Below, in pieces: positions 3,532-58,800 of a stretch of 64,000 nucleotides of DNA. The notes under the pieces were generated by a model. The model saw only the letters and a list, made by a program, of their open reading frames with translations. It made no database searches and had not been told where the DNA came from. The stretch is from contig OX359193.1 in assembly GCA_947172415.1 (NCBI GenBank), positions 7,961,501 to 8,025,500 on the forward strand. The letters are read 5' to 3'. The stretch's first letter is position 1. Each line of letters opens with the position of its first letter. A program made the position numbers and the translations under genes. The stretch is from Chondrosia reniformis (taxonomy: Eukaryota > Porifera > Demospongiae > Chondrillida > Chondrillidae).

Positions 3532-6500
3532 CTAAAGTCTCTTCACAGTTGTTGCAGATGCACTCAAAACACCTTGACGAATCATTTGTAGACTAATTGA
3601 GTAGGTTTTCCTTGGCCTGAGTCTGTTTATTAGGAATGCTCGGACTACAGAAGTTACTCTTACAGAGCTCACTATCCAATCATTTCTTCCTGAGAGGGTA
3701 ACAGTTAAAAAGAATCCTTCAATCTCATTTGAGAGTACAGATGGGATTCTCCACTGCACCAATATATTCTGTTGGCCAAGTCTTTTTACTGAGGTATACT
3801 CTGGGCTGGTCACACTCCATTCTATTATAATACATAAAAATGTATGACTAATCGAAATAATCAAACCCAGAGCATACATACATGTGATAATTTCAGAGAA
3901 AAGGAATTTTCACATCACTAGACTTACTGTAGACACAGGCTTCATCACTAATTGCCTCATTATACTTTCCAACCTTTCCTGGGCATGCAATACAAAATTC
4001 ATTTCCTTGACTTGACTGGTAATAGCCAGACTCACAGGGAATACACTTAGTGTATTCTACAGTAAATGGCCTCCCCCTGCCGTCAAGCTTTGTCATAGTC
4101 TGTACTTTTCCCGATTGGTACTTTCCAGGTAGACAATCAACTGTTTGTAAATGGAATGGTACATACCATTATAGTAATCTAGTGACAGTATTATTGATGT
4201 GGGTATAATATAGTATACTTATATACATATGTGCATGATAATTCTCTTTTTATATACACATATATACGAGAACAGATAATTAGTATATATTTTTGTTACT
4301 TACCACAGAGGATGTTATTTTCAGTGTCTAGTTCTTGTCCCAAAGGACACCTAAAAATGTACTTGTATTCAGATTCATCTCTTACAAAACATACATTTTC
4401 GTAGGAAGAGGGATTTTGAAAATCTGGTAAAACCACTTTGTAGCTTTTCATGAGACTTTGACGACTCACTGCAATCCTAGAAGAGATTACTTCCAAGGTC
4501 TCTGGAAACACTTCTGTGCTGGTTTCATTCTTTGCTATTAAGATGACACTTGCTACTGTTATATTATCACTCTTGGTGATCTGTAATTCTACCGAGTCAG
4601 CAGTCAGTGAGGCCTTCTCGAGTATTGCTTTGATTGTATCCCAAATCTCAGGTTCAGTGATGTTCTCCCCTGTGCATGATTCCAACTCAAATGTTAAAGG
4701 AATTGCCATAACTGAGACTGTAAAGTTCAGGATAGATACGTAAGCTGGCCTTGAGAAGCTGCTGCCAGCAGAGTTCCATGCCTCACATCTGTAGAAACCT
4801 TCATCCTCTTTCATGGGGGAATAGATCCAAAAGTTGTTACCAGTTCTATTCAACACTTGAGTGTAGTTAGCCTCACCGTTTGCTTTGTAGTACCACCTAA
4901 ATTGTGGATTGGGAGAGGCTGTGGCATTGCAGACCAGCATCACGTCATTCAGATCTCCAATCACTCTGGATACGTCTGATGGCTCGAAGTAGAACACTGG
5001 TGTTTGCTGTATTTCTAGGTAGGTCCAGCTGGACTTAGTTGTCCCAATGTGGTTACTTGCTTCACAGGTATAGAAACCAGTGTCTGATAGTGTGGTACTC
5101 CCAATTGTCAGGACATTGGAAGATTGCAGTGGGAGAAGGGAGTCATCCAGCTTCCACTGGAAGGTGATGGGGAATTCCGACTCTGCACCGCATTCTAGTG
5201 TCACTGTTGAGTTCTCCATTGCAGTGACATTAGTGTTAGGAGAAGCACTTATGTTTGGAGGATGAGCACACCAATAGTTGCTATCTGCTACATCTGCCAG
5301 TAATTCAGTAATGTTTCTCAGAAGATAGAGTGCTTCTTCAATTGTAATATCAGTAGAGGTTGAAAATTCAATTAAATCCTTCTCAGCTCTAGCAATTCTG
5401 TCATTAAAAGGCTGTGCTATTTCTGAAGGTGCTGAGTCCAGTACATCTTCCAAGTCAACTATCGATACTGGAAAGCAATCACCCAGGTTGTGGCACACTT
5501 GACTAAAACTACCACCAGTTTGATTCAAGACTGAATTAACTTGTGACTTCCAGGCTAAAAAGACCTCATTAGAGCTAGCATTTGCTACATTTTCTATTTG
5601 CTTGATTATGGCATTTTTGAGCTCTAATAATGCTTTAAGTTCATCATCTTGATGTGCCATCTTGCTGATTTCTTCAGATGAAACTGTCACATTAAAGTCT
5701 TCTGATGGTTGTAAATCTTCTATCTCAAAGGATGTAGTTTTTTCTTCGGTCAACTGAGAAGCAATCAGAGCAGCTGTAGCTTTCTCTACATCTGTAATAT
5801 TCTTGAGGGAAGTTAGAGATTGATGAATACTATTAAAGAATGTTATAAGATTATTCAGAGCAATACAATTATTTGTGAATTCATTCTCATTGAAATTCTC
5901 TGCACTTTGTCTCTTCTTTCGACCTCTAGTATGACCAAATGTTTCAAGAATAGATTGTCCAATTAATGTAGAGGCCGAATAGAGCGATATTTCCAAATTG
6001 CTAAAGTCAAATAAAGCAGTAACAGTGCTGGTCATTAGCTTTGCTGGAATATTAAAGGAAATCTGTAATGGAAATTCCTTTGGAGAATCCTTTGATATAT
6101 CAACTGTAAAATCTATGGCAGTTATCACGAATAAGCTGTTTCCTGATGTATTCAAAAGGGAAGCAACATCCAAAAGTGCCTTATTTTCTTCTACAATTTT
6201 CCTTAGGTTTTCTTCCAGAACTGTAAGATCAAGCATGTCATAGTTCATTTTAAGTTTCTTTAATTCCTTTTCTTTCTCCTTGACCTGAATTGCTAGATTA
6301 CTTTGTTGTGTTTCAATAGCCGCTTGTTCCTTCTTGGCTTGATCCAGCTCATTAAGAATGAAAGCTACATCATTTTGGGCACTTCTGAGGGCTTCGGATC
6401 TTCTAGTTCTACACACTGCATTCTTTTGGATGCATGCAGTGTCCCGGCTTCTTGTAGCACAGTCTGAGCGTACCTCACAAGTGTCTGTTCGTGTGACTAT

Positions 6501-9500
6501 CCTCTGCTCTGCAATGCAATCCTTCTCACAAGGGTAAAACCGGGTTGAACTAACTTTAATATATGCCCTTAGAATGCATTTGTCATGGCAACAGCAGGCA
6601 GGAGCAGTTGGGATTAGGGTGCAACTACAATCTAGGAAGTTTCCGCATCCGCACTGTCTCTGTACTGCATTGCTCCTTTGCCATGACTCACAATCAACAA
6701 TTGTTTCTTTTAACAACTTTGTTTCTTCAATGACTCTACTACATTCAGAAGGACATTTCCCTGGAATATCAACTACAGTCTGTTTCTGACATTGTGATTG
6801 CACCATTCCTGGATTGCATTTATCTGGGCAGTCTTGAATGCTACAAACTTGGTCATTCAGGTTAAGTTCCAATTGACTAGCTTCCTCTCCAACAAGAGTA
6901 AAGTTTTCCTGGAGCATTCGAATACGATTGTACAACTGGTAAAGCTCTAAATTTAAATCTTGCTTCACAAATAGTAATGCATCTAGTTCATCAGTAGTGC
7001 TGTTAATTTCTAGCTCCAATACTATTAATGAATCAGTTGCTTTCTCTAAAGCCATTTCTGCAACATTTCTCCTTACAACAGCCTGTTTTGTGATGCGGTT
7101 TAGGTACCTTTGAGTTGCATCTGTTATTCTGCTTTCAAGATCTGTTCCTGATGCATCACATACAGTGGAGCCACCTTTATATACTCCATACACTTTAAAG
7201 ACTAGTTCTTTCCAAGTGTTTTCTGCACTTCCTTCTAGTGTCAGCTGAAAGTTGTGTTTCTCATAGAGGCAGGCTTCACTCTTCATTTGGATATCAGCTG
7301 GGGTGAACATGAGTGGAGCTTTGACTGTGGTACCAAATAGCATGACCTCTGCATTTTGCAGTGTACCCTTAAACTCTCCTGTGGTGGGGTTTATGTATGT
7401 GTATCCTTGAGGACCACTGCCTTCTCCACTCAGTGAGACAAGGTTGCTGAGTCTGATGATATTTTGAGTGTACGAGGACATGAGAATCACTGGAAAGCCG
7501 GATGGAGGAGCATTGGGTACACATGGGAGGGAGGTTGGAGCTCCTAACAGTAGAGTATGGTTCATATTGCTAAAGAGAAGGTTGCCTACGTTGAGCTCAT
7601 GACAGAATGTATTCATTTCTACCCCAGAAAAGACACCTCTTGAGTCAGAGAGTATTTGAGCATTCCACGAACAGTCAAACTGATATCTATCTCCATATCT
7701 ATATAATGGAGGTATCGTAAATAGTTCGGTGAAAATTCCAGAGCCTCTTGAAAAAAGATTGTCATTGATATCTAATGTCATGAGAGGCACTCCGCAGGTA
7801 TCGGCAGCCATTTGATCCCATCCTCCCAAGTCAAGGCTTCCTATTCTGGCATTAAGCTTGTAATCGTCTAGCATGAGATCAATATGGCCCCTGACATATC
7901 CGGTAGCTTTAGCTGATAGACCAACCTTAATGAGCTACAGGTATAGTTTGTAATTACAAGAATTATATATATATATATATGCTTAACTTAGGAAGCATAA
8001 ACTCCTTTTTACTTACATTTTGCAAAGAGGCAATATTCAATCCAGCGAATCCATCCAGAAGAAGTGAAATTTGTACATCACTGAGAAGCACTCCTGTACT
8101 TAAAATTCCACTGATTACAATGTTATGGTCCCCAAAAACATTACTAAAGGGATCTATATTGGCCATGCTTATACCAAGCCAGGTGACTTCCCAACCACGA
8201 AGCAAGAACTCTTTTACCAGAGGAAGGTCTGCAAGTGTAAATTGGGCATTCCTCGGAATACTTACATGCAGAGCAGATCTGTTGCCTTCGCAAAGATCAA
8301 CAGCAAAGCAGTAGGGATCTTCTCCTGGTGAGTGTAATCCATGAGTGTCATTAATTGTTATCTGTAGAGCTCCTGAGTATATAAGTATACTATATGGAGT
8401 CTTAGTAGAGTACTCTTCTATAAAGCCTTTGCACTTTTCTACCCCTGTTATTCCTTCCTGAGACAATAGTGTTAGCTGGCTGTCACTAGAGTACAATCTA
8501 TCAGTGGCATTTGCTCTAAAGCTTAGCCAGGAAGGTAATAGTGTAGCTGTGTTTCTAAAGAAGGTGTTGCCTAAGGCTTCAGACTCCAGAAAGGCAACCT
8601 TATCAGCATTGCTAGGGCTGAGACAGTAGCATTTATCAGGTGAACCATACTCTTTACAGGTTCCAGTGAGTAATTCAGGGCATCTCTTACACTCAACATT
8701 ACCAAATGTATTAGCTTGAACGTTTATCATGCTAGAAGACTTTGCAATGGTAGCTCCATCAATTGATACTGGAAGGATCAGTCCATTGCCAGAGGAGAAT
8801 ACTATACCTGGGGTATGTTCAGCTGATCTATCGTCCTTAGTCTTTGCTCTGCTCCATTTACAAGTGGAAAGAAACCTAATTGAATTAGATTTAGCCGGAC
8901 ATGTAATAGTGGATATGCCGGCACAACATCCCTCGTCTATAATCCCAGTATCTAACTCTCTAGCACTGAAGTACTGGCTAGGGGCTCCAGATGGTTTTAC
9001 CACAGCCAGTAGTGGCACGGGCTTCTTGTAGAGGTCTTCTTCCTTACCTCCTAACTCTAATGACATTGTGTGAAAACCAGCACTTTTTGGATTTAGTGTA
9101 ACCATAGCAACAGGATTGCCTTTATTTAAGGTAATTCTAGAAGGCATGGGTTCCAACTGTGGTGATTTAAACTCAACTGTCAGTTCTGAATCGGGATGTG
9201 CCTCCACCTCTATTGTATGCAATGTTCCAACACTAAGCAAGGGAAGTTCCGGGATGGACAGAACACCCGTTTCACATGACCTGCCTGTGTATCCTGTACC
9301 CTCACAATCACATATATAGTCATCTTCTTCAGTGACAGAACAGATTCCTCCGTGGAAACAAGGATTAGAAGAGCACAGATCTCCCTCTGTAAATACATAT
9401 ATACACATATAGCAGACACCTTGATATTGGTCAATTAAAGTTACAAACCTTTACACTGAGGTTGTTCTGTCCATTCTACTGATGTTCCATTCTCATTCAG

Positions 9501-19684: not shown

Positions 19685-21380
19685 AGATTTAGCCGGACAT
19701 GTAATAGTGGATACGCCGGCACAACATCCCTCGTCTATAATCCCAGTATCTAACTCTCTAGCACTGAAGTACTGGCTAGGGGCTCCAGATGGTTTTACCA
19801 CAGCCAGTAGTGGCACGGGCTTCTTGTAGAGGTCTTCTTCCTTACCTCCTAACTCTAATGACATTGTGTGAAAACCAGCACTTTTTGGATTTAGTGTAAC
19901 CATAGCAACAGGATTGCCTTTATTTAAGGTAATTCTAGAAGGCATGGGTTCCAACTGTGGTGATTTAAACTCAACTGTCAGTTCTGAATCGGGATGTGCC
20001 TCCACCTCTATTGTATGCAATGTTCCAACACTAAGCAAGGGAAGTTCCGGGATGGACAGAACACCCGTTTCACATGACCTGCCTGTGTATCCTGTACCCT
20101 CACAATCACATATATAGTCATCTTCTTCAGTGACAGAACAGATTCCTCCGTGGAAACAAGGATTAGAAGAGCACAGATCTCCCTCTGTAAGTACATATAT
20201 ACACATATACTGTAGCAGACACCTTGATATTGGTCAATTAAAGTTACAAACCTTTACACTGAGGTTGTTCTGTCCATTCTACTGATGTTCCATTCTCATT
20301 CAGAACACACGAGATACTGGTCACAGACCCCATATCATCAACTAAAGTGTACCCTGAGGCACACTGTACAGTGCAGCTGGTGTTGAAGTCTCCACTGCAG
20401 GGTTGAAAGACATTTACAAATGGAGGTGGATCTTGAATGACGTCCTTGCACTTCATTGGGGAACACAGACTCCTAATACCAGACCAAGATACATTGGTTA
20501 GACATGTTCTGTTGGCAGAGCCCTCCAGATTGTATCCTAGGAAACAACTGAACTGACAGGTACTGCCAACTCTCAGAAAGTCAGAATCGCAGGCCAATGA
20601 ACCATGGACCAAATCATTGAACTCAGAACAGGAATACTCTGTCAGAAAAAGAAGCATTGTTGAGTTACCTACGTAGTGCTAGCATAAAAGTGTTGGTTAC
20701 AGTGAGGTATACCTGAGGATGATCTGATTTACATCGTATATACTTTATATATATTCATAGATTTAGTATATTAATGACCTCCCTTTTTACTGATACAAAA
20801 TGCAATGGATGTAATGTGTATATATGTACATATATATTAAATAATTGCTGACCTGTACATGAACGACTGTCTGCATTTAGGAAGAAATGCTGAGGGCAGG
20901 TACATGTAAAGCTTCCTTCAGTATTGGTACAGCCATACTCGCACCCACCATTGTTTTGAAGACACTCATTAACATCTAATTATAATAGATGAACACAATT
21001 ATATTGTATTAAGGCTTATGTGTGTATATCTATAAGTGCATATATAGAAAATATAAAACAATGTAGTGTATTAGAAAATTGAAAATATATCTACATGTAA
21101 ATTGATAAACATTACAATTATTGAATGTTTTTAAGGATGCCATCATTATACAGTACATTTTCACTATATATAATGGAAGGTTTCCCAACTCACCCAGACA
21201 ACTTCTTTGATTTGTTAATTACATTAAGAAAATAGCCTGGGAAACATTGACATTCAAATGATCCTGGAATGTTATTACATAACTGTTCACAACCAGAAGT
21301 ACCAGCTGTACATTCATCAATATCTACAGGTATGAATACAGTCTTTATAATTATAATACATGTTTATATATGTATATATA

Positions 21381-21760
21381 CAAGTAAAAATAAAAAACAT
21401 TTACAAAAATGATGTTAGAAGTAGAAATGGCAGTGTTCACTAATACATCTGCAAAAAGTATCGAAACAAGACACTGATTATATGATAAGGCTAATCATAC
21501 AGAAGTTGCATATATACTGAAATTTAAGTAACTTAACCATACACTTCTGTGTTTGGGCGCACTAACCTTAAGTAGGAATGGTGCGCCCAAACACAGAAGT
21601 GTATGGTTAAGTTACTTAAATTTCAGTATATATGCAACTTCTGTATGATTAGCCTTATCATATAATTAGTGTCTTGTTTCGATACTTTTTGCAGATGTAT
21701 TAGTGAACACTGCCATTTCTACTTCTAACATCATTTTTGTAAATGTTTTTTATTTACTTG
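21381..21760. mobile_element. Long hairpin (foldback) element, copy 1
   Basis: A near-perfect inverted repeat: left arm 21381-21562, right arm 21581-21760, about 18-base loop. The ends read CAAGTAAA...TTTACTTG. It has no coding capacity. It interrupts the intron between EGF exons in copy 2; copy 1 of the gene (near 10,580) lacks it. It resembles foldback or palindromic MITE elements; no target duplication longer than TA is visible. Confidence 0.8.
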
Positions 21761-22314
21761 TATTCCCCCTTTTTTCCTCTTAATATTACTTGTTTTAAAT
21801 TGATTTGAAAGTTTTCTTGGCGAAGATCTCAAAATAACGTCTTAGACAAGAGAAATATGCCGAAAACCATGATCTCTTAATTAAAAAATGGCGTCCGAGA
21901 AGACCACAATTTTCGCTCTTCACAATTAACATGTTTATTGTAGAGCGCATTCAGATTTAGGGCTGTCTATTCCCTAGTTCCGAAATATTTATGACGATTT
22001 ATAACTAGTACGTGCCCGCACAAGTTCGCATATTAGCGCTAGTCTATTCAATAAAAGAAGAAGAAGAAGAAAAAATGAATTTTGGAAGTGGGTCTATTCC
22101 TAGTTAGCCGCTTTTTGAACGCTATAGAGCGTGTAGAGCGTCGAAACATGTTTTGGCATTTAGGAAAGCGTGCATTAATCGCTGCAAATAACCGAATATA
22201 ACCGAAAATCGCTTCGTTGGCGATTTATTAGGTGTTGATTGCTAATACATTGGATAGGGCGGCCATTTTTTTTTCCGGCCATTCCTACTTAGAGAGTACT
22301 ACCGTACTCTCTGA
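21761..22314. mobile_element. Non-coding element tail with 3' terminal hairpin, copy 1
   Basis: A 554-base stretch directly after the hairpin element, repeated almost unchanged at 25230-25789. It includes a GAA run (22,065-22,080) and ends with a 9-base stem, 4-base loop hairpin (AGAGAGTAC TACC GTACTCTCT) followed by GA, then host sequence beginning with T. A terminal CTGA next to a hairpin with insertion between A and T is suggestive of Helitron or Helentron ends, but the hairpin is closer to the end than usual and no 5' TC is evident. Confidence 0.5.
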
Positions 22315-22921
22315 TATATAATACTTGTATGACATGTCTATGTACAGTAATATATACCTTGGCAATCACTTCCATCTGCAGTTGGTTCATATCCATTTTT
22401 ACAAGTGCATACAAAGCCTCCCTCAGTGTTTTGACAGTTTTGTCTGACTGTACAGTTATGCGTTTCTTGTGCACACTCATCAGTATCTGTAAATATGTAT
22501 ATATGTACTTGTACTGTATATATATAATAAACAGCATGTATATACAGTATATAATAATATCCATTGGTACTCTGTTTAGCTAAGTGATTCATAGGTGTGA
22601 TAGCTACCTTCACATGACAAGCCATCTGCTCTCAATTGAAACCCTGTAGGACATTCACACAAGTAAGAGCCGATTGTGTTCACGCAGTCATGTTGACAGC
22701 CACCATTGTACGTCAGACATTCATCTTTATCTGTATAGATAGCAAGGAAAATATATACATATATATAGACATTCAATCTGTACAATCATACAGTACATAT
22801 ATATATATATTTTGTATTTGACTAATGGAAGTCATTTTCATATGATTCAGAAGTTAAATTTAATATGTACTGTGTAAGTGATTTGAATCTCAGTGGTTGA
22901 AAATACCAGATATATACGTAT

Positions 22922-23143
22922 ATCCTGATTGTAATTAACACATGCAAGTTTATGCATATTTAAATTAACAGGTATTGTGCAATTTTTTTTGAAACCACAA
23001 GTGCTTCACTTGCATGTAATGGATTATATAAGTAGTATATACCAAGTTTATCACACCTATGAGCCCAAAAAGGATGAAACAACTGCCTGTGTCTCTTTTA
23101 TGATTTCAATTGTATTATAGGATTGAAGTCTTAGTGTATAAAA
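22922..23143. repeat. Direct repeat R1, copy 1
   Basis: About 222 bases nearly identical to 24746-24966, each followed directly by a copy of the hairpin element. The pair brackets the gene fragment at 23,662-24,445. No coding content seen. Confidence 0.75.
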
Positions 23144-23503
23144 CAAGTAAATAAAAAACATTTACAAAAATGATGTTAGAAGTAGAAATGGCAGTGTTCA
23201 CTAATCCATCTGCAAAAAGTATCGAAACAAGACACTGATTATATGATAGGGCTAATCATACAGAAGTTGCATATATACTGAAATTTAAGTAACTTAACCA
23301 TACACTTCTGTGTTTGGGCGCACTAACCTTAATTAGGAATGGTGCGCCCAAACACAGAAGTGTATGGTTAAGTTACTTAAATTTCAGTATATATGCAACT
23401 TCTGTATGATTAGCCTTATCATATAATCAGTGTCTTGTTTCGATACTTTTTGCAGATGTATTACTTTTAACATCATTTTTGTAAATGTTTTTTTATTTAC
23501 TTG
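23144..23503. mobile_element. Long hairpin element, copy 2
   Basis: Same inverted-repeat element as at 21381, but its right arm lacks about 24 bases near 23,462-23,465 and it is not followed by the hairpin-ended tail. The loop is at about 23,325-23,340. Confidence 0.75.
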
Positions 23504-23661
23504 TATATATTTAATTCATATAGCAGTATATTTAGTGCTGTAACTCTGTCCAATGGGCAAATACAGTATATGAATCTTGACCTGTGTGTCATCATTCACA
23601 GACATGTATAAGACATTTCCAATGAGTTTTATAACTGTAACACTTAATTTACCAATAGATT

Positions 23662-46892: not shown

Positions 46893-49800
46893 CTAAAGTC
46901 TCTTCACAGTTGTTGCAGATGCACTCAGAACACCTTGACGAATCATTTGTAGACTAATTGAGTAGGTTTTCCTTGGCCTGAGTCTGTTTATTAGGTATGC
47001 TCGGACTACAGAAGATACTCTTACAGAGCCCACTATCCGATCATTTCTTCCTGAGAGGGTAACAGTTAAAAAGAATCCTTCAATCTCATTTGAGAGTACA
47101 GATGGGATTCTCCACTGCACCAATATATTTTGTTGGGCAAGTCTTTTTACTGAGGTATACTCTGGGTTGGTCACACTCCATTCTATTATAATACATAAAA
47201 ATGTATGACTAATCGAAATACTGTACATATCACAAGAAACTTTACAAATCCGACGAATTCCGCGCAGCTAACCTCGGCGTTACCATCTCTTGCCTTTCCG
47301 CGGAACGTCTCTTGCCTTTCCGCGGAACGTCTCTTCCCTGTCCGCGGAACGTCTCTGCTGTATCGCGACGCACACAAGGTTTGTACTGGTACGTATCTGC
47401 ACCTATTGGTCGAAATCAACGTGAAAGTATCCTTTATACGTATACGTACGTGCACACTTGAGGTGCGAGATTATCCCCAGATTGACTAAGGTTGAGGATG
47501 TATTTAAAGCATGCAGTTTCATCTACTCCTCTCTAATGTCTATTATGAATGAATAGAGCATTGCTGTGACAACTGTAGTTCAGTGACAGAGCACATGTCA
47601 ATTGAATATGAATTTTGTTATTCCTGCAATGTTAATGTATTGAAACACACTCTGTAGTATATAAATTACACAAGAGCACACATTACCTATTGTATATAGT
47701 TCCTATGCCTATATATGGAGTTTTATTCTTGGTCACACACTAATACACTAATTCTGTAAATGTTTGGTTTGGCACACTGGGATTTTATAATGTAGGAAAT
47801 TGAACCATAGAAGTGCTACTCTTCAACCAAGTGAGAGCAGTCTTCCCCAATCCACAAAGAAGGACAGGCACAGCGGCCATCTTTTAGACATGTACCTCCA
47901 TTTTGGCAGCTACAAGTATCTTGACAATCTTCATCAGGACCACATTCTGTTTGTGAAGATTAAATTAATATATATCTGTAATTATAATATGTATGAGGTC
48001 CTTTCAGAACAGAACAGACTCTCACTGATGAAGGGTGAAAATTGTGTATGTCATACCCGTCTAAGGTGATTATTAATAGAATAAGGATTTCTTCTAATTG
48101 TGTTAAACTTTTCTTTGAAAGGTTCCCGAAGGTCAAAACGTCTGACAATTGCAAGATAATGACCAACTGTGTCTCCAGACGGTCAAAAGTTAGAAAGGTG
48201 AACCTTTCAAAAGATAAGGTTAGTATTGTTGCTTTCTATCATCTATCAGAGAGTACAGCAATACCCACTAAGTGGGGGTGGGCATAACCTAGAGTTAGCT
48301 ACAACAGAACCACAGGATTACACAATGATGTAGTGGTTGATACACTGTATATTATCTGATATGAATATGTTAGCCAAAACCACATTGAATATGCTTTGTG
48401 CATAATTCCATACACTGTACATACAGTATATTCAAAGCATATTTTTTGTACGTATATATATAAAATACCTTCTACATTCTGGATGATTCCAATTGCAAAG
48501 TTTTTCCTACAAATGAGCTGTCCATTTTGAGGTACTATAGCAAAGTAGAAGTCTTCATCATCTTCTGGTAGCACGTCAGCAATGACCCTTACACTGCACA
48601 CAGTATTCCTAGCTCCTACTTCAAAACAACAGGTATTGTTGTCCACAGTGTAATCACTCCCATCTATATATATATACAGAGAGGAATATGTGTAGCGTAT
48701 ACATATGTATGTATACAACATCTCTGTTTCATGGTGTGATATTGATTATGACAACCTAGAAGACAAGTTTATCTTGAAATCCTCTTGGAAATGATAACTA
48801 AAATAAAAGAAGTTTCTACAGATTTATTGGACCCATATCTTACAAGTTGCATTTCCATTTCCAACTTTAAATTCAACACATTTCTGTTCCTCAGTAGTTC
48901 CACTTCTATGTATTCCGAAAGATAGCATTTCTGATGTCTCAAAGGCAGTAATAATGGTTTCTTCAGGACAGAATATTTCGACTATAAAGGGAGTAAACAG
49001 ATCAATAAAAGATATGGTGGTTTAGTACGTACATATATATGATAAATGTATATATATATGCACATACTTGCAACAGAATCCAGTTTCATTCCACCCGGGT
49101 AGCCATAAGAAGTTTCTCTTCCCCATGCATAAACTAACACACCAAATCTACTGTCTCCATTTTGACCATACTGTAGAATTGAGGTGTTAGAACTGAGCCT
49201 GTATTGGGCAGCACGGGCTACTGTCAATCCAGCTGAGTTAATGATATTTTTAAAGGTTACTGGAACTCTAACATCATTCACTAGAAGAACCTGGGCATCA
49301 AAGTATTCTTCAGGAATAAACACATTAATATATGGATCAAATCTAAGTGAATCGTCCGAGATACTCTCAAGTGGAGATAACAGGTTGTATTGTCTGCCAA
49401 GCTGTTCAATTGGCGGTACCATCATCATAAATGGATCTGCGCTATTTGAGCCTGTTGTATCAACATCATATGTGTACCCCAGTGAGAAAAGCATTACAAG
49501 AATTGGATGATTTGACTCTACATAACACCAGTAATTATTTGGGTATAGCCTGAAGACTGACTTTCCAGCATTTAGCAAAATTATTTCAGAGTGCACCCTA
49601 TTACAGGTGATTTGTATGGTAGTGCTATCTTTACTAGCAATCAGTTTGTATCCACTGGCTTCCCTTGTTGTGAGTGGCATCAGTACAAACCTAAACCCCC
49701 AGGTCTCAATTGGAGGTATCTGCTCAACCAAGTGATCACAAGCTGTTTTATCAGATGGAACAAATCCACATTGGTGTCCGGAGAGAAAGGTAATAGGTTT

Positions 49801-52800
49801 GTCTGCTATGACCCTTGTACCTGTTAGGTCCCCAGCTGAAGCAACAAAAGTATATACATCACCAGCCCTTGTCTTCCTTGCTCTTAATACAGCTGTCTCT
49901 CCAGCTGAAATAAAAATTTTTATTCCAAAGAAGGTGCTGACATCAGTGGATGGTGTTATGGAGAGCCTTGTCATGTCTTCATTTACAACTACAGTAACAA
50001 ATCCTCTAAAACTAAATCTGTGAGGCCCCCCTTGTTGTACAGAGACAGCTATGTATTCATAGCTTCCTGTAGTTGTTTCAAATTTTGGTAGGGCAAGAAA
50101 GCCATCAATTGATGCAGACTCTTCAATAAGTCCATATACAATTAGGTTTCTTCCATCACTAGACCTGACATTAATAGCTAAATCATTTCCTTGTGCCAAA
50201 AGGTTGTTTGGATTAATCTTGAATGTGTCATTAATGAGTACTTGAGTCACTTCTCCTTTAATGGCTACATATGTGACTGGTGTACCTGTTCTTCCTGACC
50301 GAACAGTGAATGGAACTGGACTATTCTCATCTGTAGTTATTAAAACTTGAGGTGGATAGACAATTCCACCACGTACAAGAATGTTATTTGGTGGAATGGC
50401 CAACCAAAATTCTTGTCCTCTATTGTCCTTAGCTAAGTCCTTTAAATCTAAAGAGATGCAATTATTGTTATTAAATACATATATAGATTTTTCTTATAAA
50501 TACTTACATGTACGTACATATATATTTGGAAAGGGTGTTTCATTACAGTGTCAGTATATATAAAATTGTGTATGTCTAAAGGCTGAAATGTGAAGCAATC
50601 ATAATAATAATGTTAAATCATTCAGACAACTGAGTGATATCACTATACTCTTTCTTCAATTAGTGCATGGTTGGACAAATATATAGTTATGTATACATAC
50701 GTAAGAGTTCACGCATACCAAGTACTGTACTTACTTTGACAATCCACTAGTCGCATGCACTTCCCCTCATGTAGTACCATTCCATCAGTGCAGAAACACC
50801 CTGTCTTACAAGGATATTCACCAATGACATCCTCACAAGTTGGAACTACTGATTGTCCACAAACTTTAAATGTCTGATCATCAGGACATGTTGGTACTGA
50901 GAGTGATATAACATTTATTAATTATACACATATATATATACAAGAAATGTGACCACAACTGTATATTTAATATATTTATAATCAGAGGCAAAGCTTCACT
51001 GACAGGTTAAATATTTTGTTTATGATGCAATGTTTATACCTATGTATGTATAATCTGAACACCATTTCCTACATACTACTAGTAAGAGCCTTGGATTAGG
51101 ATATAAGAGACCTTCTGCTCCACTGGGCCAGACAGCTCATCCTTAATCAGTGACCTTTGTGTGTCTTTCTGGAAGTTCTTCTTTGAATCCTTAGATCATG
51201 TAACTCATGACTGCACCAAATATACATCACACTCACCAGTACAGTTCCTTCCATCAATTGATAACAAGTATCCTTCTCTACAGCTACAGTTGAATGATCC
51301 TTCAGTGTTGATGCAATTATGCTCACATATATCCTCAATAATATCACACTCATCAATATCTGCAGTATGCATAGATTTACATTCATGTAAATATACTATC
51401 TAAACTCATAATAATTAACGATGTAGGTACGGTACATGTCACAAGAAACTTTACAAAATCCGACGAATTCCGCGCAGCTAACAAATATTGCGCATTAAAT
51501 AACTATCGATCGACTATTCTACGGCTACCCTTCGACGATTCCACGGCTACAGTAGCCCTGCGACGATTTCACGGCTACCCTTCGACAATTCCGCGGATGC
51601 CCTTTGACGATTCCGCGGATGCCCTTTGACGATACCACGGAACCCTTTGAGGAATCTGCGGATGTTCTTTGAAGATTCCGCGGAAGACGGATTTTGTAAA
51701 GTGACTTGTGACACGTACCGTAACTACGTACATACATATGTATAATTATAACAGCTAGTTATGTACCAGTGCAATTTCTTCCATTTTCTGACAGCTCATA
51801 TCCAATTTGACATCCACAGACATATGATCCCACAAGGTTGAAACACAATTGTTCGCAATCATTTATCATATTTTGCATTTGGCCACATTCATCAATATCT
51901 AATATAAAGAATATTATAAACAAATAAACAAACAAAAATACCGTAACAGAGGTGGGCTCAACTTTCAATAGCATGTGTTGATGTTAACAATGTAGTACAA
52001 AGGTAGGCAACTGTGCAAGACAGGCTCCGGTTCCAAAGGCCTCCCATTAACTATGGTCAACTTTTTTAACCTTCATTATATAAAGGTACAGCTAGTGCAA
52101 TAATTGAGTCAAAATTGAAAGATATACGTATACATATAACAACATATATTAACAATGTTTTGCATTTAAGATCACTGCATAAAAATGTCATATAATAGTA
52201 ATAGACCTTTTATTTCAATTATGTACATATATGGCAAAATCTGGTCAAACTTTTGTGTTAGTATATGTTGCACACAAGCACTTACCATTGCAATCTTTTC
52301 CATTTTCTGCCAGCTTATATCCATGGGGACAAGAGCAACTGTATGATCCCTTAGTATTAGCGCAGTCTTGTTCACATTCATGCTCTCCAGTGGTACATTC
52401 ATCAATGTCTTATTATTGCATGTAAAAAGAAATGTTAGAAATTCTTAACCTTAATTAATATATTATTCAAAAAGTGTTTCAAGTTGAGCCAATTAGACAT
52501 TAATATATACACATCCTATTGATCATTACCTTCACAATGGCTGCTTGAGTTCAAAACTAGAGTATACCCAGGATTACATCCACAATAGTATGATCCTCTG
52601 TTATTGTGACAGACTTGTTCACAATTATCATATTCCATTTGGCACTCATTTATATCTAACAATTTAAAAAAGTCAATCTAGTGAAATACGTAGTTATAAT
52701 TATAAGATAGCTCTCAAAATTAAAACACATTGAACACTTAGTCTAGTACTAATCAAAATTACCACTGCAATTTCTTCCATTTTCTGCCAGTTCATATCCT

Positions 52801-55800
52801 TTCATACAAGAGCAGTTGTAAGATCCTTCAGTATTATCACAGAGTTGTTCACATTCATCCAACCCACTTGCACATTCATCAATATCTATACATGTACATG
52901 TACAAAATGGGAGGCTTGGTTATAAACAGTTATATATAAGACCATTGTGTTTAAAGATATACAGGAATTAACTATATACGTATGTACATACATACATTAC
53001 ATCAACTGATAGTTACCTATTCCTGTAAATATATATAAACACATAATAATTAACTATGTAGGTAACTACATACATATGTATATAACAGCTAGTTATGTAT
53101 ATAACAGCTAGTTATGTACCAGTGCAATTTTTTCCATTTTTTGCCAGTTCATATCCTTTCATACAAGAGCAGTTGTAAGATCCTTCAGTATTATTACAGA
53201 GTTGTTCGCATTCATCCAAACCACTTGCACATTCATTGATATCTATACATGCACATGTACAAAGCACGGAATATACATATACATGTACGGAGGCTTGGTA
53301 ATATATTAAATCCTTTTTTTCACGAGTTATATAATATACTGTAAGACCATTGTATTTTAAAGATGTGCAGGAATCAACTATATATATGTATGTACGTACA
53401 TATACAATCCGTGTACAGTCTAATGTTACTGATTATATACATTAACTGACAGTTACCTTCACAGTTATTGCTTGCATTGCCAAACCCTAATTGGTACCCT
53501 TCAAAGCACTCGCAAACAAATGTTGCATTGAGAACTATACATATCTGGTCATGATCACAATCATGATAACCATCAGCACAAGGATCAATTTCTACAGAAT
53601 TTGGAATGAATTAACAATTTTACAAACAGTTACTATATAAATTAAACTTGGTGTGCTATATACATATTGTTATTATACCTAAACAGCTCCTTCCATTTTC
53701 CGCTAGTATGTAACCATCTGAACAGCTACAGTAGTATGACCTGTCAGTGTTTATACAATTCTGCTCACACAAGTGTTCTCCGGTAGCACACTCATCAATA
53801 TCTAAATATAGAAATAAGATATATGTTATCTAGAGAGTATCTTTACAGAAGTATATTCATATGTATAATGAAAAATAAATATATTATATACGTATATATA
53901 TATGACATGCATGCCAAGGATTCACAAAAGATCAAGAAAAAGACAAAGATTCCCAGGGTCACCAATGAAGGGTGGAATTCCCAGAAACAGCTGTCTGGCC
54001 CAGTGGAGCAAAAGAAGAAAGAGAAGACTCCTGTATCTTCATCCAAAGCCTTTCCGCAGAACGTCTCTTCCCTGTCCGCGGATCGTCTTTGTCCTTATCC
54101 GCGGAACGTCTCTGCTGTACACAAGGTTTGTACTGGCACACTATTGGTCGAAATCAACGTGAAAGTATCCTTTATACGTATACGTACGTGCACACTCGAG
54201 GTGCGAGATTATCCCCACATCTGCACACGATTCCGCGGAACCCTTTGAGGAATCTGTGGATATTCTTTGACGATTCCGCGGAAGAGCCGCGGATTACCTA
54301 CGCGGCAGATCCGTGGATTTTGTGAAGTTACTTGTGACACGTACCGTAATCAAACCCATATATACGTACATACATGTGATAATTTCAGAGAAAAGTAATT
54401 TTCACATCACTAGACTTACTGTAGACACAGGCTTCATCACTAATTGCACCACTATACTTTCCAACCTTTCCTGGGCATGCAATACAAAATTCATTCCCTT
54501 GACCTGACTGGTAATAGCCAGACTCACAGGGAATACACTTAGTGTATTCTACAGTAAATGGCCTCCCCCTGCCGTCAAGCTTTGTCATAGTCTGTACTTT
54601 TCCCGATTGGTACTTTCCAGGTAGACAATCAACTGTTTGTAAATGGAATGGTACATACCATTATAGTAATCTAGTGACAGTATTATTGATGTGGGTATAA
54701 TATAGTATACTTATATACATATGTGCATGATAATTCTCTTTTTATATACACATATATACGAGAACAGATAATTAGTATATATTTTTGTTACTTACCACAG
54801 AGGATGTTATTTTCAGTGTCTAGTTCTTGTCCCAAAGGACACCTAAAAATGTACTTGTATTCAGATTCATCTCTTACAAAACATACATTTTCGTAGGAAG
54901 AGGGATTTTGAAAATCTGGTAAAACCACTTTGTAGCTTTTCATGAGACTTTGACGACTCACTGCAATCCTAGAAGAGATTACTTCCAAGGTCTCTGGAAA
55001 CACTTCTGTGCTGGTTTCATTCTTTGCTATTAAGATGACACTTGCTACTGTTATATTATCACTCTTGGTGATCTGTAATTCTACCGAGTCAGCAGTCAGT
55101 GAGGCCTTCTCGAGTATTGCTTTGATTGTATCCCAAATCTCAGGTTCAGTGATGTTCTCCCCTGTGCATGATTCCAACTCAAATGTTAAAGGAATTGCCA
55201 TAACTGAGACTGTAAAGTTCAGGATAGATACGTAAGCTGGCCTTGAGAAGCTGCTGCCAGCAGAGTTCCATGCCTCACATCTGTAGAAACCTTCATCCTC
55301 TTTCATGGGGGAATAGATCCAAAAGTTGTTACCAGTTCTATTCAACACTTGAGTGTAGTTAGCCTCACCGTTTGCTTTGTAGTACCACCTAAATTGTGGA
55401 TTGGGAGAGGCTGTGGCATTGCAGACCAGCATCACGTCATTCAGATCTCCAATCACTCTGGATACGTCTGATGGCTCGAAGTAGAACACTGGTGTTTGCT
55501 GTATTTCTAGGTAGGTCCAGCTGGACTTAGTTGTCCCAATGTGGTTACTTGCTTCACAGGTATAGAAACCAGTGTCTGATAGTGTGGTACTCCCAATTGT
55601 CAGGACATTGGAAGATTGCAGTGGGAGAAGGGAGTCATCCAGCTTCCACTGGAAGGTGATGGGGAATTCCGACTCTGCACCGCATTCTAGTGTCACTGTT
55701 GAGTTCTCCATTGCAGTGACATTAGTGTTAGGAGAAGCACTTATGTTTGGAGGATGAGCACACCAATAGTTGCTATCTGCTACATCTGCCAGTAATTCAG

Positions 55801-58800
55801 TAATGTTTCTCAGAAGATAGAGTGCTTCTTCAATTGTAATATCAGTAGAGGTTGAAAATTCAATTAAATCCTTCTCAGCTCTAGCAATTCTGTCATTAAA
55901 AGGCTGTGCTATTTCTGAAGGTGCTGAGTCCAGTACATCTTCCAAGTCAACTATCGATACTGGAAAGCAATCACCCAGGTTGTGGCACACTTGACTAAAA
56001 CTACCACCAGTTTGATTCAAGACTGAATTAACTTGTGACTTCCAGGCTAAAAAGACCTCATTAGAGCTAGCATTTGCTACATTTTCTATTTGCTTGATTA
56101 TGGCATTTTTGAGCTCTAATAATGCTTTAAGTTCATCATCTTGATGTGCCATCTTGCTGATTTCTTCAGATGAAACTGTCACATTAAAGTCTTCTGATGG
56201 TTGTAAATCTTCTATCTCAAAGGATGTAGTTTTTTCTTCGGTCAACTGAGAAGCAATCAGAGCAGCTGTAGCTTTCTCTACATCTGTAATATTCTTGAGG
56301 GAAGTTAGAGATTGATGAATACTATTAAAGAATGTTATAAGATTATTCAGAGCAATACAATTATTTGTGAATTCATTCTCATTGAAATTCTCTGCACTTT
56401 GTCTCTTCTTTCGACCTCTAGTATGACCAAATGTTTCAAGAATAGATTGTCCAATTAATGTAGAGGCCGAATAGAGCGATATTTCCAAATTGCTAAAGTC
56501 AAATAAAGCAGTAACAGTGCTGGTCATTAGCTTTGCTGGAATATTAAAGGAAATCTGTAATGGAAATTCCTTTGGAGAATCCTTTGATATATCAACTGTA
56601 AAATCTATGGCAGTTATCACGAATAAGCTGTTTCCTGATGTATTCAAAAGGGAAGCAACATCCAAAAGTGCCTTATTTTCTTCTACAATTTTCCTTAGGT
56701 TTTCTTCCAGAACTGTAAGATCAAGCATGTCATAGTTCATTTTAAGTTTCTTTAATTCCTTTTCTTTCTCCTTGACCTGAATTGCTAGATTACTTTGTTG
56801 TGTTTCAATAGCCGCTTGTTCCTTCTTGGCTTGATCCAGCTCATTAAGAATGAAAGCTACATCATTTTGGGCACTTCTGAGGGCTTCGGATCTTCTAGTT
56901 CTACACACTGCATTCTTTTGGATGCATGCAGTGTCCCGGCTTCTTGTAGCACAGTCTGAGCGTACCTCACAAGTGTCTGTTCGTGTGACTATCCTCTGCT
57001 CTGCAATGCAATCCTTCTCACAAGGGTAAAACCGGGTTGAACTAACTTTAATATATGCCCTTAGAATGCATTTGTCATGGCAACAGCAGGCAGGAGCAGT
57101 TGGGATTAGGGTGCAACTACAATCTAGGAAGTTTCCGCATCCGCACTGTCTCTGTACTGCATTGCTCCTTTGCCATGACTCACAATCAACAATTGTTTCT
57201 TTTAACAACTTTGTTTCTTCAATGACTCTACTACATTCAGAAGGACATTTCCCTGGAATATCAACTACAGTCTGTTTCTGACATTGTGATTGCACCATTC
57301 CTGGATTGCATTTATCTGGGCAGTCTTGAATGCTACAAACTTGGTCATTCAGGTTAAGTTCCAATTGACTAGCTTCCTCTCCAACAAGAGTAAAGTTTTC
57401 CTGGAGCATTCGAATACGATTGTACAACTGGTAAAGCTCTAAATTTAAATCTTGCTTCACAAATAGTAATGCATCTAGTTCATCAGTAGTGCTGTTAATT
57501 TCTAGCTCCAATACTATTAATGAATCAGTTGCTTTCTCTAAAGCCATTTCTGCAACATTTCTCCTTACAACAGCCTGTTTTGTGATGCGGTTTAGGTACC
57601 TTTGAGTTGCATCTGTTATTCTGCTTTCAAGATCTGTTCCTGATGCATCACATACAGTGGAGCCACCTTTATATACTCCATACACTTTAAAGACTAGTTC
57701 TTTCCAAGTGTTTTCTGCACTTCCTTCTAGTGTCAGCTGAAAGTTGTGTTTCTCATAGAGGCAGGCTTCACTCTTCATTTGGATATCAGCTGGGGTGAAC
57801 ATGAGTGGAGCTTTGACTGTGGTACCAAATAGCATGACCTCTGCATTTTGCAGTGTACCCTTAAACTCTCCTGTGGTGGGGTTTATGTATGTGTATCCTT
57901 GAGGACCACTGCCTTCTCCACTCAGTGAGACAAGGTTGCTGAGTCTGATGATATTTTGAGTGTACGAGGACATGAGAATCACTGGAAAGCCGGATGGAGG
58001 AGCATTGGGTACACATGGGAGGGAGGTTGGAGCTCCTAACAGTAGAGTATGGTTCATATTGCTAAAGAGAAGGTTGCCTACGTTGAGCTCATGACAGAAT
58101 GTATTCATTTCTACCCCAGAAAAGACACCTCTTGAGTCAGAGAGTATTTGAGCATTCCACGAACAGTCAAACTGATATCTATCTCCATATCTATATAATG
58201 GAGGTATCGTAAATAGTTCGGTGAAAATTCCAGAGCCTCTTGAAAAAAGATTGTCATTGATATCTAATGTCATGAGAGGCACTCCGCAGGTATCGGCAGC
58301 CATTTGATCCCATCCTCCCAAGTCAAGGCTTCCTATTCTGGCATTAAGCTTGTAATCGTCTAGCATGAGATCAATATGGCCCCTGACATATCCGGTAGCT
58401 TTAGCTGATAGACCAACCTTAATGAGCTACAGGTATAGTTTGTAATTACAAGAATTATATATATATATATATGCTTAACTTAGGAAGCATAAACTCCTTT
58501 TTACTTACATTTTGCAAAGAGGCAATATTCAATCCAGCGAATCCATCCAGAAGAAGTGAAATTTGTACATCACTGAGAAGCACTCCTGTACTTAAAATTC
58601 CACTGATTACAATGTTATGGTCCCCAAAAACATTACTAAAGGGATCTATATTGGCCATGCTTATACCAAGCCAGGTGACTTCCCAACCACGAAGCAAGAA
58701 CTCTTTTACCAGAGGAAGGTCTGCAAGTGTAAATTGGGCATTCCTCGGAATACTTACATGCAGAGCAGATCTGTTGCCTTCGCAAAGATCAACAGCAAAG

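What the first reader, a model, noticed from the sequence alone, without database searches (positions are those of the whole stretch)
47221..54346. Transposon-like insertion of 13 host-type exons with a known empty site
The segment has inverted ends, a duplicated TA, and an exact unoccupied site in the paralogous intron at 3858-3859. Instead of a transposase it carries exons for EGF, TIL, IgGFc-binding-like and Calx-beta-like modules. Gene capture by TA-targeting elements is known in plants (Pack-TIRs) but such a clean, dated case in a sponge-like genome would be notable.
Basis: partly seen in the sequence, partly recalled or inferred. Interest (0 to 1): 0.9.

Follow-up and report, generated by a model that had tools for sequence, protein, structure and literature searches.

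The report
Transposon-carried 13-exon gene trap in sponge
In a kidney-sponge chromosome, a Tc1-type jumping element carries the last 13 exons of another gene, with its stop codon and a likely end-of-transcript signal, and sits in an intron of a different gene so that the two could splice in frame into a new hybrid protein: a recent example of exon shuffling, not yet shown to be expressed.

Summary
Window 47221-54346 is a 7,126-bp segment with imperfect inverted ends between TA and TA; paralogue copy A (3858-3859) is its exact empty site. I paired ends at 23 other loci; the 13 read hold no host exons, and three of them hold transposase frames. The cargo (47595-54046) matches a donor gene 0.88 Mb away (C5:7122747-7129109), introns included: 92-95% over half of it, 77-89% in other pieces, 0.7 kb unmatched. 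No element ends were found around the donor in the 15 kb read. Host and cargo genes run in the same direction; the host intron and all 13 predicted cargo acceptors are phase 1. Joining the upstream host exon to E1-E13 gives an open frame ending at the donor's own stop, followed by AATAAA; the host's old last exon (Fn3) would be bypassed. The chimeric frame is intact in copies B and C. This is a Pack-TIR-type capture, known in animals but usually tiny (published median 224 bp); size, phase match and gene-trap layout are unusual. Not shown: expression, selection on the chimera, or whether capture preceded insertion.

The parts
47221..54346 (.). loaded Tc1-type non-autonomous element (Pack-TIR), 7,126 bp
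   Evidence: exact empty site at 3858-3859; family ends elsewhere in the genome
47219..47220 (.). TA target-site duplication, left
54347..54348 (.). TA target-site duplication, right
3858..3859 (.). empty target site (single TA) in paralogue copy A
47221..47482 (.). left arm: terminal repeat, GC-rich tandem array and segment m of the element family
54048..54346 (.). right arm: second direct copy of array and m, followed by the right terminal repeat
47595..54046 (-). captured gene segment with 13 exons and introns, matching the donor locus C5:7122747-7129109: 92-95% over 47595-50930, 77-89% in other pieces, about 0.74 kb around E5/E6 without a close match
47482..47593 (-). stretch between left arm and main cargo, 84% to C5:7138151-7138259 downstream of the donor gene; probably captured with it
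53679..53801 (-). captured exon E1 (EGF), phase-1 acceptor that would join the host exon
53457..53591 (-). captured exon E2 (EGF)
53120..53242 (-). captured exon E3 (EGF)
52763..52885 (-). captured exon E4 (EGF)
52530..52655 (-). captured exon E5 (EGF); no match in the present donor
52286..52408 (-). captured exon E6 (EGF); best donor match only 76%
51767..51898 (-). captured exon E7 (EGF)
51237..51359 (-). captured exon E8 (EGF)
50735..50896 (-). captured exon E9 (TIL)
49068..50447 (-). captured exon E10 (IgGFc_binding)
48844..48981 (-). captured exon E11 (Calx-beta, first part)
48469..48663 (-). captured exon E12 (Calx-beta, second part)
47816..47946 (-). captured terminal exon E13 with the donor's stop codon; EGF-like by my reading, no Pfam best stretch reported on it
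47722..47727 (-). AATAAA (candidate poly(A) signal) carried with the cargo, also at donor 7128977
51430..51720 (.). 291-bp element of the same family nested in the cargo, TA-flanked; empty in a paralogous intron of the cargo and absent from the donor
54420..54632 (-). host exon (Ephrin_rec_like) just upstream of the insertion, phase-1 donor
46893..47182 (-). host's original last exon (Fn3) with stop, downstream of the insertion
54791..58426 (-). host gene large open frame with Ig domains

Best explanation
A non-autonomous member of a Tc1-type (DD34E) TA-targeting transposon family acquired a genomic segment holding the 3' part of a modular extracellular gene: eight EGF exons, TIL, IgGFc-binding, two Calx-beta exons, a last exon with stop, and an AATAAA. 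The loaded element lies in a phase-1 intron of another modular gene, in the same transcriptional direction, and would work as a natural gene trap: the host's upstream exon splices in frame to E1, the transcript ends at the captured signal, and the host's original Fn3 last exon is bypassed or becomes an alternative end. The locus was later copied in tandem (B and C). Shown: element ends, TA duplication, empty site, donor match, no element ends around the donor in the 15 kb read, phase-compatible predicted splice sites, open chimeric frame in two near-identical copies. Inferred: direction from donor to element, use of the trap in RNA, function. The route of capture is open: either two neighbouring copies with complementary losses formed one hybrid element in the donor region that then moved as a unit, or a break inside a small element already in the host intron was filled by template switching to the donor.
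For: Exact empty site and TA duplication. Ends paired at 23 other loci (my pairing). Transposase frame in a 3.27-kb member, DDE_3 E=3e-20; D-to-E spacing 34 counted by me on the translation. Donor DNA match including introns, from the edge of the right arm to 47595; E10 protein 96% to the donor, against 61% for the best partial and 56% for the best long match elsewhere outside B and C. Donor region 7120001-7135000: element-end matches only at E 0.38 or worse, m at E 0.008. All 14 acceptors considered (13 cargo exons and Fn3) are AG and phase 1, and 13 of 13 donors (host exon, E1-E12) are GT; chimeric frame open with one terminal stop, also in C (2 of 1,075 positions differ). AATAAA about 88 nt after the stop in cargo and donor. 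dN/dS 0.39 for donor versus B (24.5 synonymous, 34.5 nonsynonymous changes) over 8 of 13 exons. Of 18 donor/B differences in E10, 3 are derived in B, 4 in the donor, 11 unclear.
Against: No RNA or protein evidence was available. Splice sites are predicted by eye. A dN/dS of 0.39 is not clearly below the 0.5 expected if only the donor branch were constrained (my reasoning, not tested), so constraint on the cargo is only suggested. A single AATAAA in AT-rich DNA is weak by itself. The present donor locus lacks E5, matches E6 at only 76%, has six copies of the E3/E4-type exon and an E2 with a lost acceptor, so the true source was an earlier state or a sibling of this locus. B and C are near-identical (6 of 6,856 in the insert), so two intact copies are not independent evidence. 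No outgroup roots copy A as ancestrally empty: beyond A, B and C the Fn3 exon has only two 34% matches.
Confidence: 0.85

Rival explanations
1. Route A (within the best explanation): in-place filling. A small element (about 0.4 kb) inserted in the host intron first, and a later break inside it was repaired by template switching to the donor gene, so the 7.1 kb never moved as a unit.
For: Single-copy capture from the same chromosome fits the gap-filling pattern in Tan et al.. Outside the tandem array the two arms differ by 3 or 4 substitutions plus a 10-bp and a 9-bp gap (my count on the alignment), similar to donor-cargo divergence in two of three non-coding stretches (2.7% and 3.9%; the third is 11.7%), so the arms could have been one sequence at capture.
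Against: No copy of the site with an unloaded element was found. A simple gap fill predicts loss or no change of element sequence, not a direct duplication of about 190 bp on both sides of the cargo. Over their whole length, array included, the arms are only 83.9% alike.
Confidence: 0.45
2. Route B (within the best explanation): hybrid element, then transposition. Two element copies in the same orientation flanked the donor segment, lost complementary ends and jumped as one unit into the host intron.
For: Anatomy is left end-array-m, gene, array-m-right end: the left unit lacks its right end and the right unit its left end, the arrangement reported for plant Pack-CACTA formation (passage in PMC13317346). 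Copy A is empty to the base.
Against: No remains of either element around the donor in the 15 kb read; only one insertion site is known, B and C sharing flanks.
Confidence: 0.45
3. The loaded state is ancestral for A, B and C, and copy A lost the element by precise excision.
For: No outgroup host gene was found to root the site.
Against: Copy A has a single TA and no footprint; Tc1-type excision usually leaves one (recalled). Even if true, the capture and gene-trap reading stands.
Confidence: 0.08
4. Not a transposon event: ancestral exons of the host gene lost from copy A by deletion.
For: Donor and host genes share module types such as EGF and Ephrin_rec_like.
Against: Between window 42000 and 63000, DNA similarity to the donor (E 1e-8 or better) is confined to 47595-54046; the boundaries coincide with ends of a genome-wide element family and a TA duplication.
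Confidence: 0.02

Closest known systems
Animal Pack-TIRs (Tan et al. 2021, PMC8277862)
   Same: non-TE sequence between ends of a TIR element, parental copy identified, single capture, often on the same chromosome as the parent (59.8%); 115 of 370 are TcMariner; chimeric transcripts reported
   Different: published median cargo 224 bp and 13.4% exonic; here about 6.5 kb with 13 exons, in-frame phase-1 joint, stop and AATAAA, donor 0.88 Mb away where 56.9% of theirs lie within 15 kb; 'sponge' and 'Amphimedon' do not occur in its main text
Plant Pack-MULEs and Pack-TYPE elements (as told in PMC8277862 and PMC13317346)
   Same: TIR elements carrying gene fragments and contributing exons to host transcripts
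   Different: other lineages; Pack-MULE median 305 bp as quoted in PMC8277862
Turmoil-1 transduplication in C. elegans (PMC2572040, abstract)
   Same: animal DNA element with captured coding pieces
   Different: fragments of two genes inside its inverted terminal repeats, not the 3' half of one gene between the ends
Exon shuffling of class 1-1 modules (PMC8001218, passages)
   Same: extracellular modules bounded by phase-1 introns
   Different: there inferred from module and intron patterns and ascribed to intronic recombination; here vehicle, donor and empty site all survive

Membership tests
Tc1/mariner element family | TA target-site duplication | tested here: met
   TA/TA and empty site with one TA; nested copy has its own empty site in an intron inside the cargo. 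Of 13 other elements read, 9 have TA on both sides; L017a, L017b and L021 lack the left TA and the right end of L022 is unclear
Tc1/mariner element family | terminal inverted repeats shared with other copies | tested here: met
   paired ends at 23 other loci; the 13 read, chosen by end matches, have recognisable ends, that of L022 altered on the right
Tc1/mariner element family | DDE/D transposase, Tc1-type DD34E, in autonomous relatives | tested here: met
   frame in L026, DDE_3 3e-20; also open in L025, broken in L028; spacing counted by me, label recalled
Tc1/mariner element family | mobilised by that transposase | not testable with these tools
   needs an excision assay
Pack-TIR | non-TE sequence between the two ends of one TIR element | tested here: met
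Pack-TIR | identifiable parental copy elsewhere | tested here: met
   C5:7122747-7129109; no element end found within 7120001-7135000
Pack-TIR | short microhomology at capture breakpoints | tested here: inconclusive
   at most 1-2 bp by eye at either junction
Pack-TIR, transposition-dependent (multicopy) type | copies at several sites with different TSDs | tested here: not met
   only B and C, which share flanks by tandem duplication
Exon shuffling (class 1-1) | inserted modules and recipient intron all phase 1 | tested here: met
   on predicted exon boundaries; the terminal exon E13 has no second intron
Functional chimeric gene | chimeric transcript | not testable with these tools

The most novel reading that the evidence does not exclude
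A DNA transposon has recently performed textbook exon shuffling in a sponge: it delivered 13 phase-1 exons plus a transcription end into another modular gene, swapping the C-terminus of an extracellular multi-domain protein in one step; the chimera is expressed, kept by selection and multiplied by tandem duplication, showing a concrete vehicle for the class 1-1 module shuffling that built animal extracellular proteins.
Probability: 0.4. Interest if true: 0.88.

Novelty: new variant of a known kind. Interest (0 to 1): 0.76.

Why it matters
Exon shuffling of phase-1 modules is argued to have built much of the animal extracellular toolkit (PMC8001218, passages), but the vehicle is usually long gone. 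Here the transposon ends, the unoccupied site, the donor gene, phase-matched predicted splice sites and transposase-bearing relatives are all present in one early-branching animal, at a few percent divergence in parts. That turns 'can a cut-and-paste transposon bring a multi-exon cassette in frame into a new gene?' into a test with existing RNA and long-read data. It also extends animal Pack-TIR cargo from a published median of about 0.2 kb to about 6.5 kb.

Tried and rejected
Other loaded elements: of 23 paired loci, 13 were read. Compared with each other, 11 of 13 have no stretch of 60 bp or more outside family sequence; L017a holds one of about 0.36 kb that has 34 further match rows in the genome (probably another small element), and L021 one of about 0.6 kb that looks retroelement-like to my eye (no search run). 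I saw no host exons in the 13, but ran no protein-family search on them apart from the two L026 frames.

Ancestral exons lost from A: rejected on boundaries and on absence of DNA similarity between host and donor outside the insert. End-bypass at the donor in its simplest form: no element ends found there.

Dating: abandoned. A-B right flank shows 0 of 3,750 differences after the first 250 bp, while A-C and B-C differ by about 2% there, so exchange has reset it.

The 113 bp between left arm and main donor match looked at first like filler; a genome search placed most of it at C5:7138151-7138259, 9 kb beyond the donor breakpoint.

dN/dS: E2 (1-nt difference at the acceptor) and E3-E6 (no one-to-one partner in the donor) were dropped, leaving 8 of 13 exons. 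Fn3 A versus B gave 2 synonymous and 6 nonsynonymous changes, too few to read. One of three non-coding donor-cargo stretches (53370-54046) gave 11.7% against 2.7% and 3.9%; it borders the EGF exon array and is not explained.

Literature: searches only. PMC8277862: parts 1-2 of 10 and found passages; PMC12181767, PMC8001218, PMC13317346: found passages; PMC2572040: abstract and outline. That no comparable sponge case is in print rests only on the listings.
Full report
Where it is. The window is G000:C5:7961501-8025500 of a 117,379,552-bp, 15-contig genome. Ten of its 15 contig lengths were returned. Nine agree to the printed digits with the published table for the kidney sponge Chondrosia reniformis, odChoReni1.1 (1: 10.41, 2: 10.29, 5: 8.8, 6: 8.73, 7: 8.46, 9: 7.7, 10: 7.66, 11: 7.63, 12: 7.52 Mb), and C4 is 8.954 against 8.96; the total (117.37 Mb, 14 chromosomes plus mitochondrion) also fits (PMC12181767, found passages). 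The identification is mine; no tool named the genome.

The observation. Segment 47221-54346 is absent from paralogue A, whose single TA (3858-3859) is the meeting point of both flanks. The ends are imperfect inverted repeats, 23 of 28 alike (my count). In the 144 kb read there are three copies of the region around the site: A (empty), B (this one) and C, 35 kb further on, loaded with the same insert; other copies of parts of the host gene also exist. In C the left arm is interrupted by 4.65 kb with 1,148-bp direct repeats at both ends, 99.9% identical, probably an LTR retrotransposon. B and C differ at 6 of 6,856 aligned sites of the insert from 47490 on, so one is a recent duplicate of the other.

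The element family. A query over left flank, left end and array start gave 42 match rows and a right-end query 35 rows, several per locus and both lower bounds. By coordinates, 23 loci outside this cluster have both ends in the right order, 0.1 to 3.4 kb apart; in two of them the left match starts inside the element, and for one the right end comes. I read 13. Nine of the 13 have TA on both sides; three lack the left TA and one right end is unclear. Three (L025, L026, L028) are 2.8-3.3 kb. L026 and L025 hold an open transposase frame and L028 a broken one. The L026 frame matches Pfam DDE_3 at 3e-20, and its last catalytic spacing, counted by me on the translation, is 34: Tc1 type (label recalled). 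A second frame on the other strand of L026 weakly resembles a BEN domain (18.9 bits, below the 23.2 cut-off). The insert under study is thus a non-autonomous, loaded member. A 291-bp member (51430-51720) is nested in the cargo; an intron inside the cargo (53040-53110) shows its empty site, and it is absent from the donor.

The cargo and its source. The frame of the IgGFc exon (503 aa) matches C5:7126131-7127627 at 96% protein identity; outside B and C the next are a partial match of 61%, one of 56% over residues 23-395, and otherwise 54% or less over long matches. DNA of the insert from 47595 to 54046 matches C5:7122747-7129109, introns included: 92.3% (47595-48356), 95.3% (48414-50930), 89.3% (50931-51434), 76.5% (51756-52005) and 82.9% (53117-54046), gaps counted. 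Exceptions: an EGF exon array with different copy number, about 0.74 kb around E5/E6 without a close match, and the stretch 47482-47593, which matches C5:7138151-7138259 at 84%. Between window 42000 and 63000 nothing outside 47595-54046 matched the donor region at E 1e-8. Element-end queries found nothing better than E 0.38 there, segment m nothing better than E 0.008. Frames upstream of the matched part of the donor include two with Ephrin_rec_like domains, so the cargo looks like the 3' part of a longer gene; I did not verify that gene's transcript.

Why it looks like a gene trap. The host gene runs on the minus strand (EGF, sushi, Ig, Ephrin_rec_like, then Fn3 with stop) and so does the cargo. 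With the exon boundaries I chose, the host intron is phase 1 and so is every acceptor from E1 to E13. Joining host exon 54632-54420 to E1 through E13 gives one open frame, 1,074 residues for that part, ending at the donor's own stop; joining it to Fn3 instead gives the original short end. E13 has no evident phase-1 donor site before its stop (my reading), and AATAAA follows at 47727-47722 as in the donor. So the cargo brings acceptor, coding exons, stop and a candidate poly(A) signal; the host would supply promoter and N-terminal modules (its start was not read). Domains gained: eight EGF-type exons, TIL, IgGFc_binding and Calx-beta, and a last EGF-like exon by my reading.

Is it kept? The frame is intact in B and C, but these are near-copies. 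Donor versus B over 8 of 13 exons: dS 0.049, dN 0.019, ratio 0.39 (a simple binomial test of the nonsynonymous deficit gave p = 0.0003, which does not separate the donor branch from the cargo branch). In E10, of 18 donor/B differences, 3 are derived in B, 4 in the donor and 11 unclear against nine paralogues. This suggests, but does not prove, similar constraint on both.

How the element was loaded. The cargo is flanked by two direct copies of the array-m segment (83.9% alike in all; 3 or 4 substitutions and two gaps outside the array): the left unit lacks a right end and the right unit lacks a left end. That is what fusion of two neighbouring elements with complementary losses would leave, a route described for plant Pack-CACTA (passage in PMC13317346); break repair with template switching and overlap could leave it too. 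Single-copy capture from the same chromosome favours gap filling by the animal survey (PMC8277862). I leave this open.

Timing. Donor-cargo non-coding divergence is 2.7% and 3.9% in two stretches and 11.7% in a third beside the exon array; A-B flanks, counted as non-coding there, are 1.4-3.4%. But A and B are identical over 3,750 bp starting 250 bp from the site, where C differs from both by about 2%, so exchange between copies has reset the flank clock.

Verdict. In kind it is a Tc1-type Pack-TIR. It is unusual for its cargo size (about 6.5 kb against a published median of 224 bp), for carrying a phase-matched 3' gene half with its own termination, and for preserving donor, vehicle and empty site together. 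Expression and function are untested.

Noticed in passing
L010-L011, window-scale coordinates 82890-87538: Probable LTR retrotransposon (1,148-bp direct repeats, 99.9% identical) inside the left arm of copy C; recent insertion.
   Followed up: no
L026:2222-3214 (-): A 3.27-kb element of this Tc1-type family carries a second, antisense frame weakly resembling a BEN domain (18.9 bits, below cut-off); unusual for a Tc1 element as far as I recall.
   Followed up: partly
3860-8000 versus 54349-58480: Copies A and B are identical for 3,750 bp starting 250 bp from the insertion, while C differs from both by about 2%: recent exchange that stops near the insert.
   Followed up: partly
C5:7123454-7124684 (L046): Donor gene has six near-identical copies of the E3/E4-type EGF exon where the cargo has two, and lacks E5: fast turnover of EGF exon number.
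   Followed up: partly
C5:7123176-7123329 (L046): Donor exon E2 lacks the AG acceptor at the aligned position (alignment with one gap) and has a cysteine-to-phenylalanine change, while cargo E2 is intact.
   Followed up: no
21378-23506: Cluster of short inverted and direct repeats between host gene copies.
   Followed up: no
L017:1771-2132: Stretch inside one 1-kb family element with 34 further match rows in the genome: probably another small element nested in it.
   Followed up: partly
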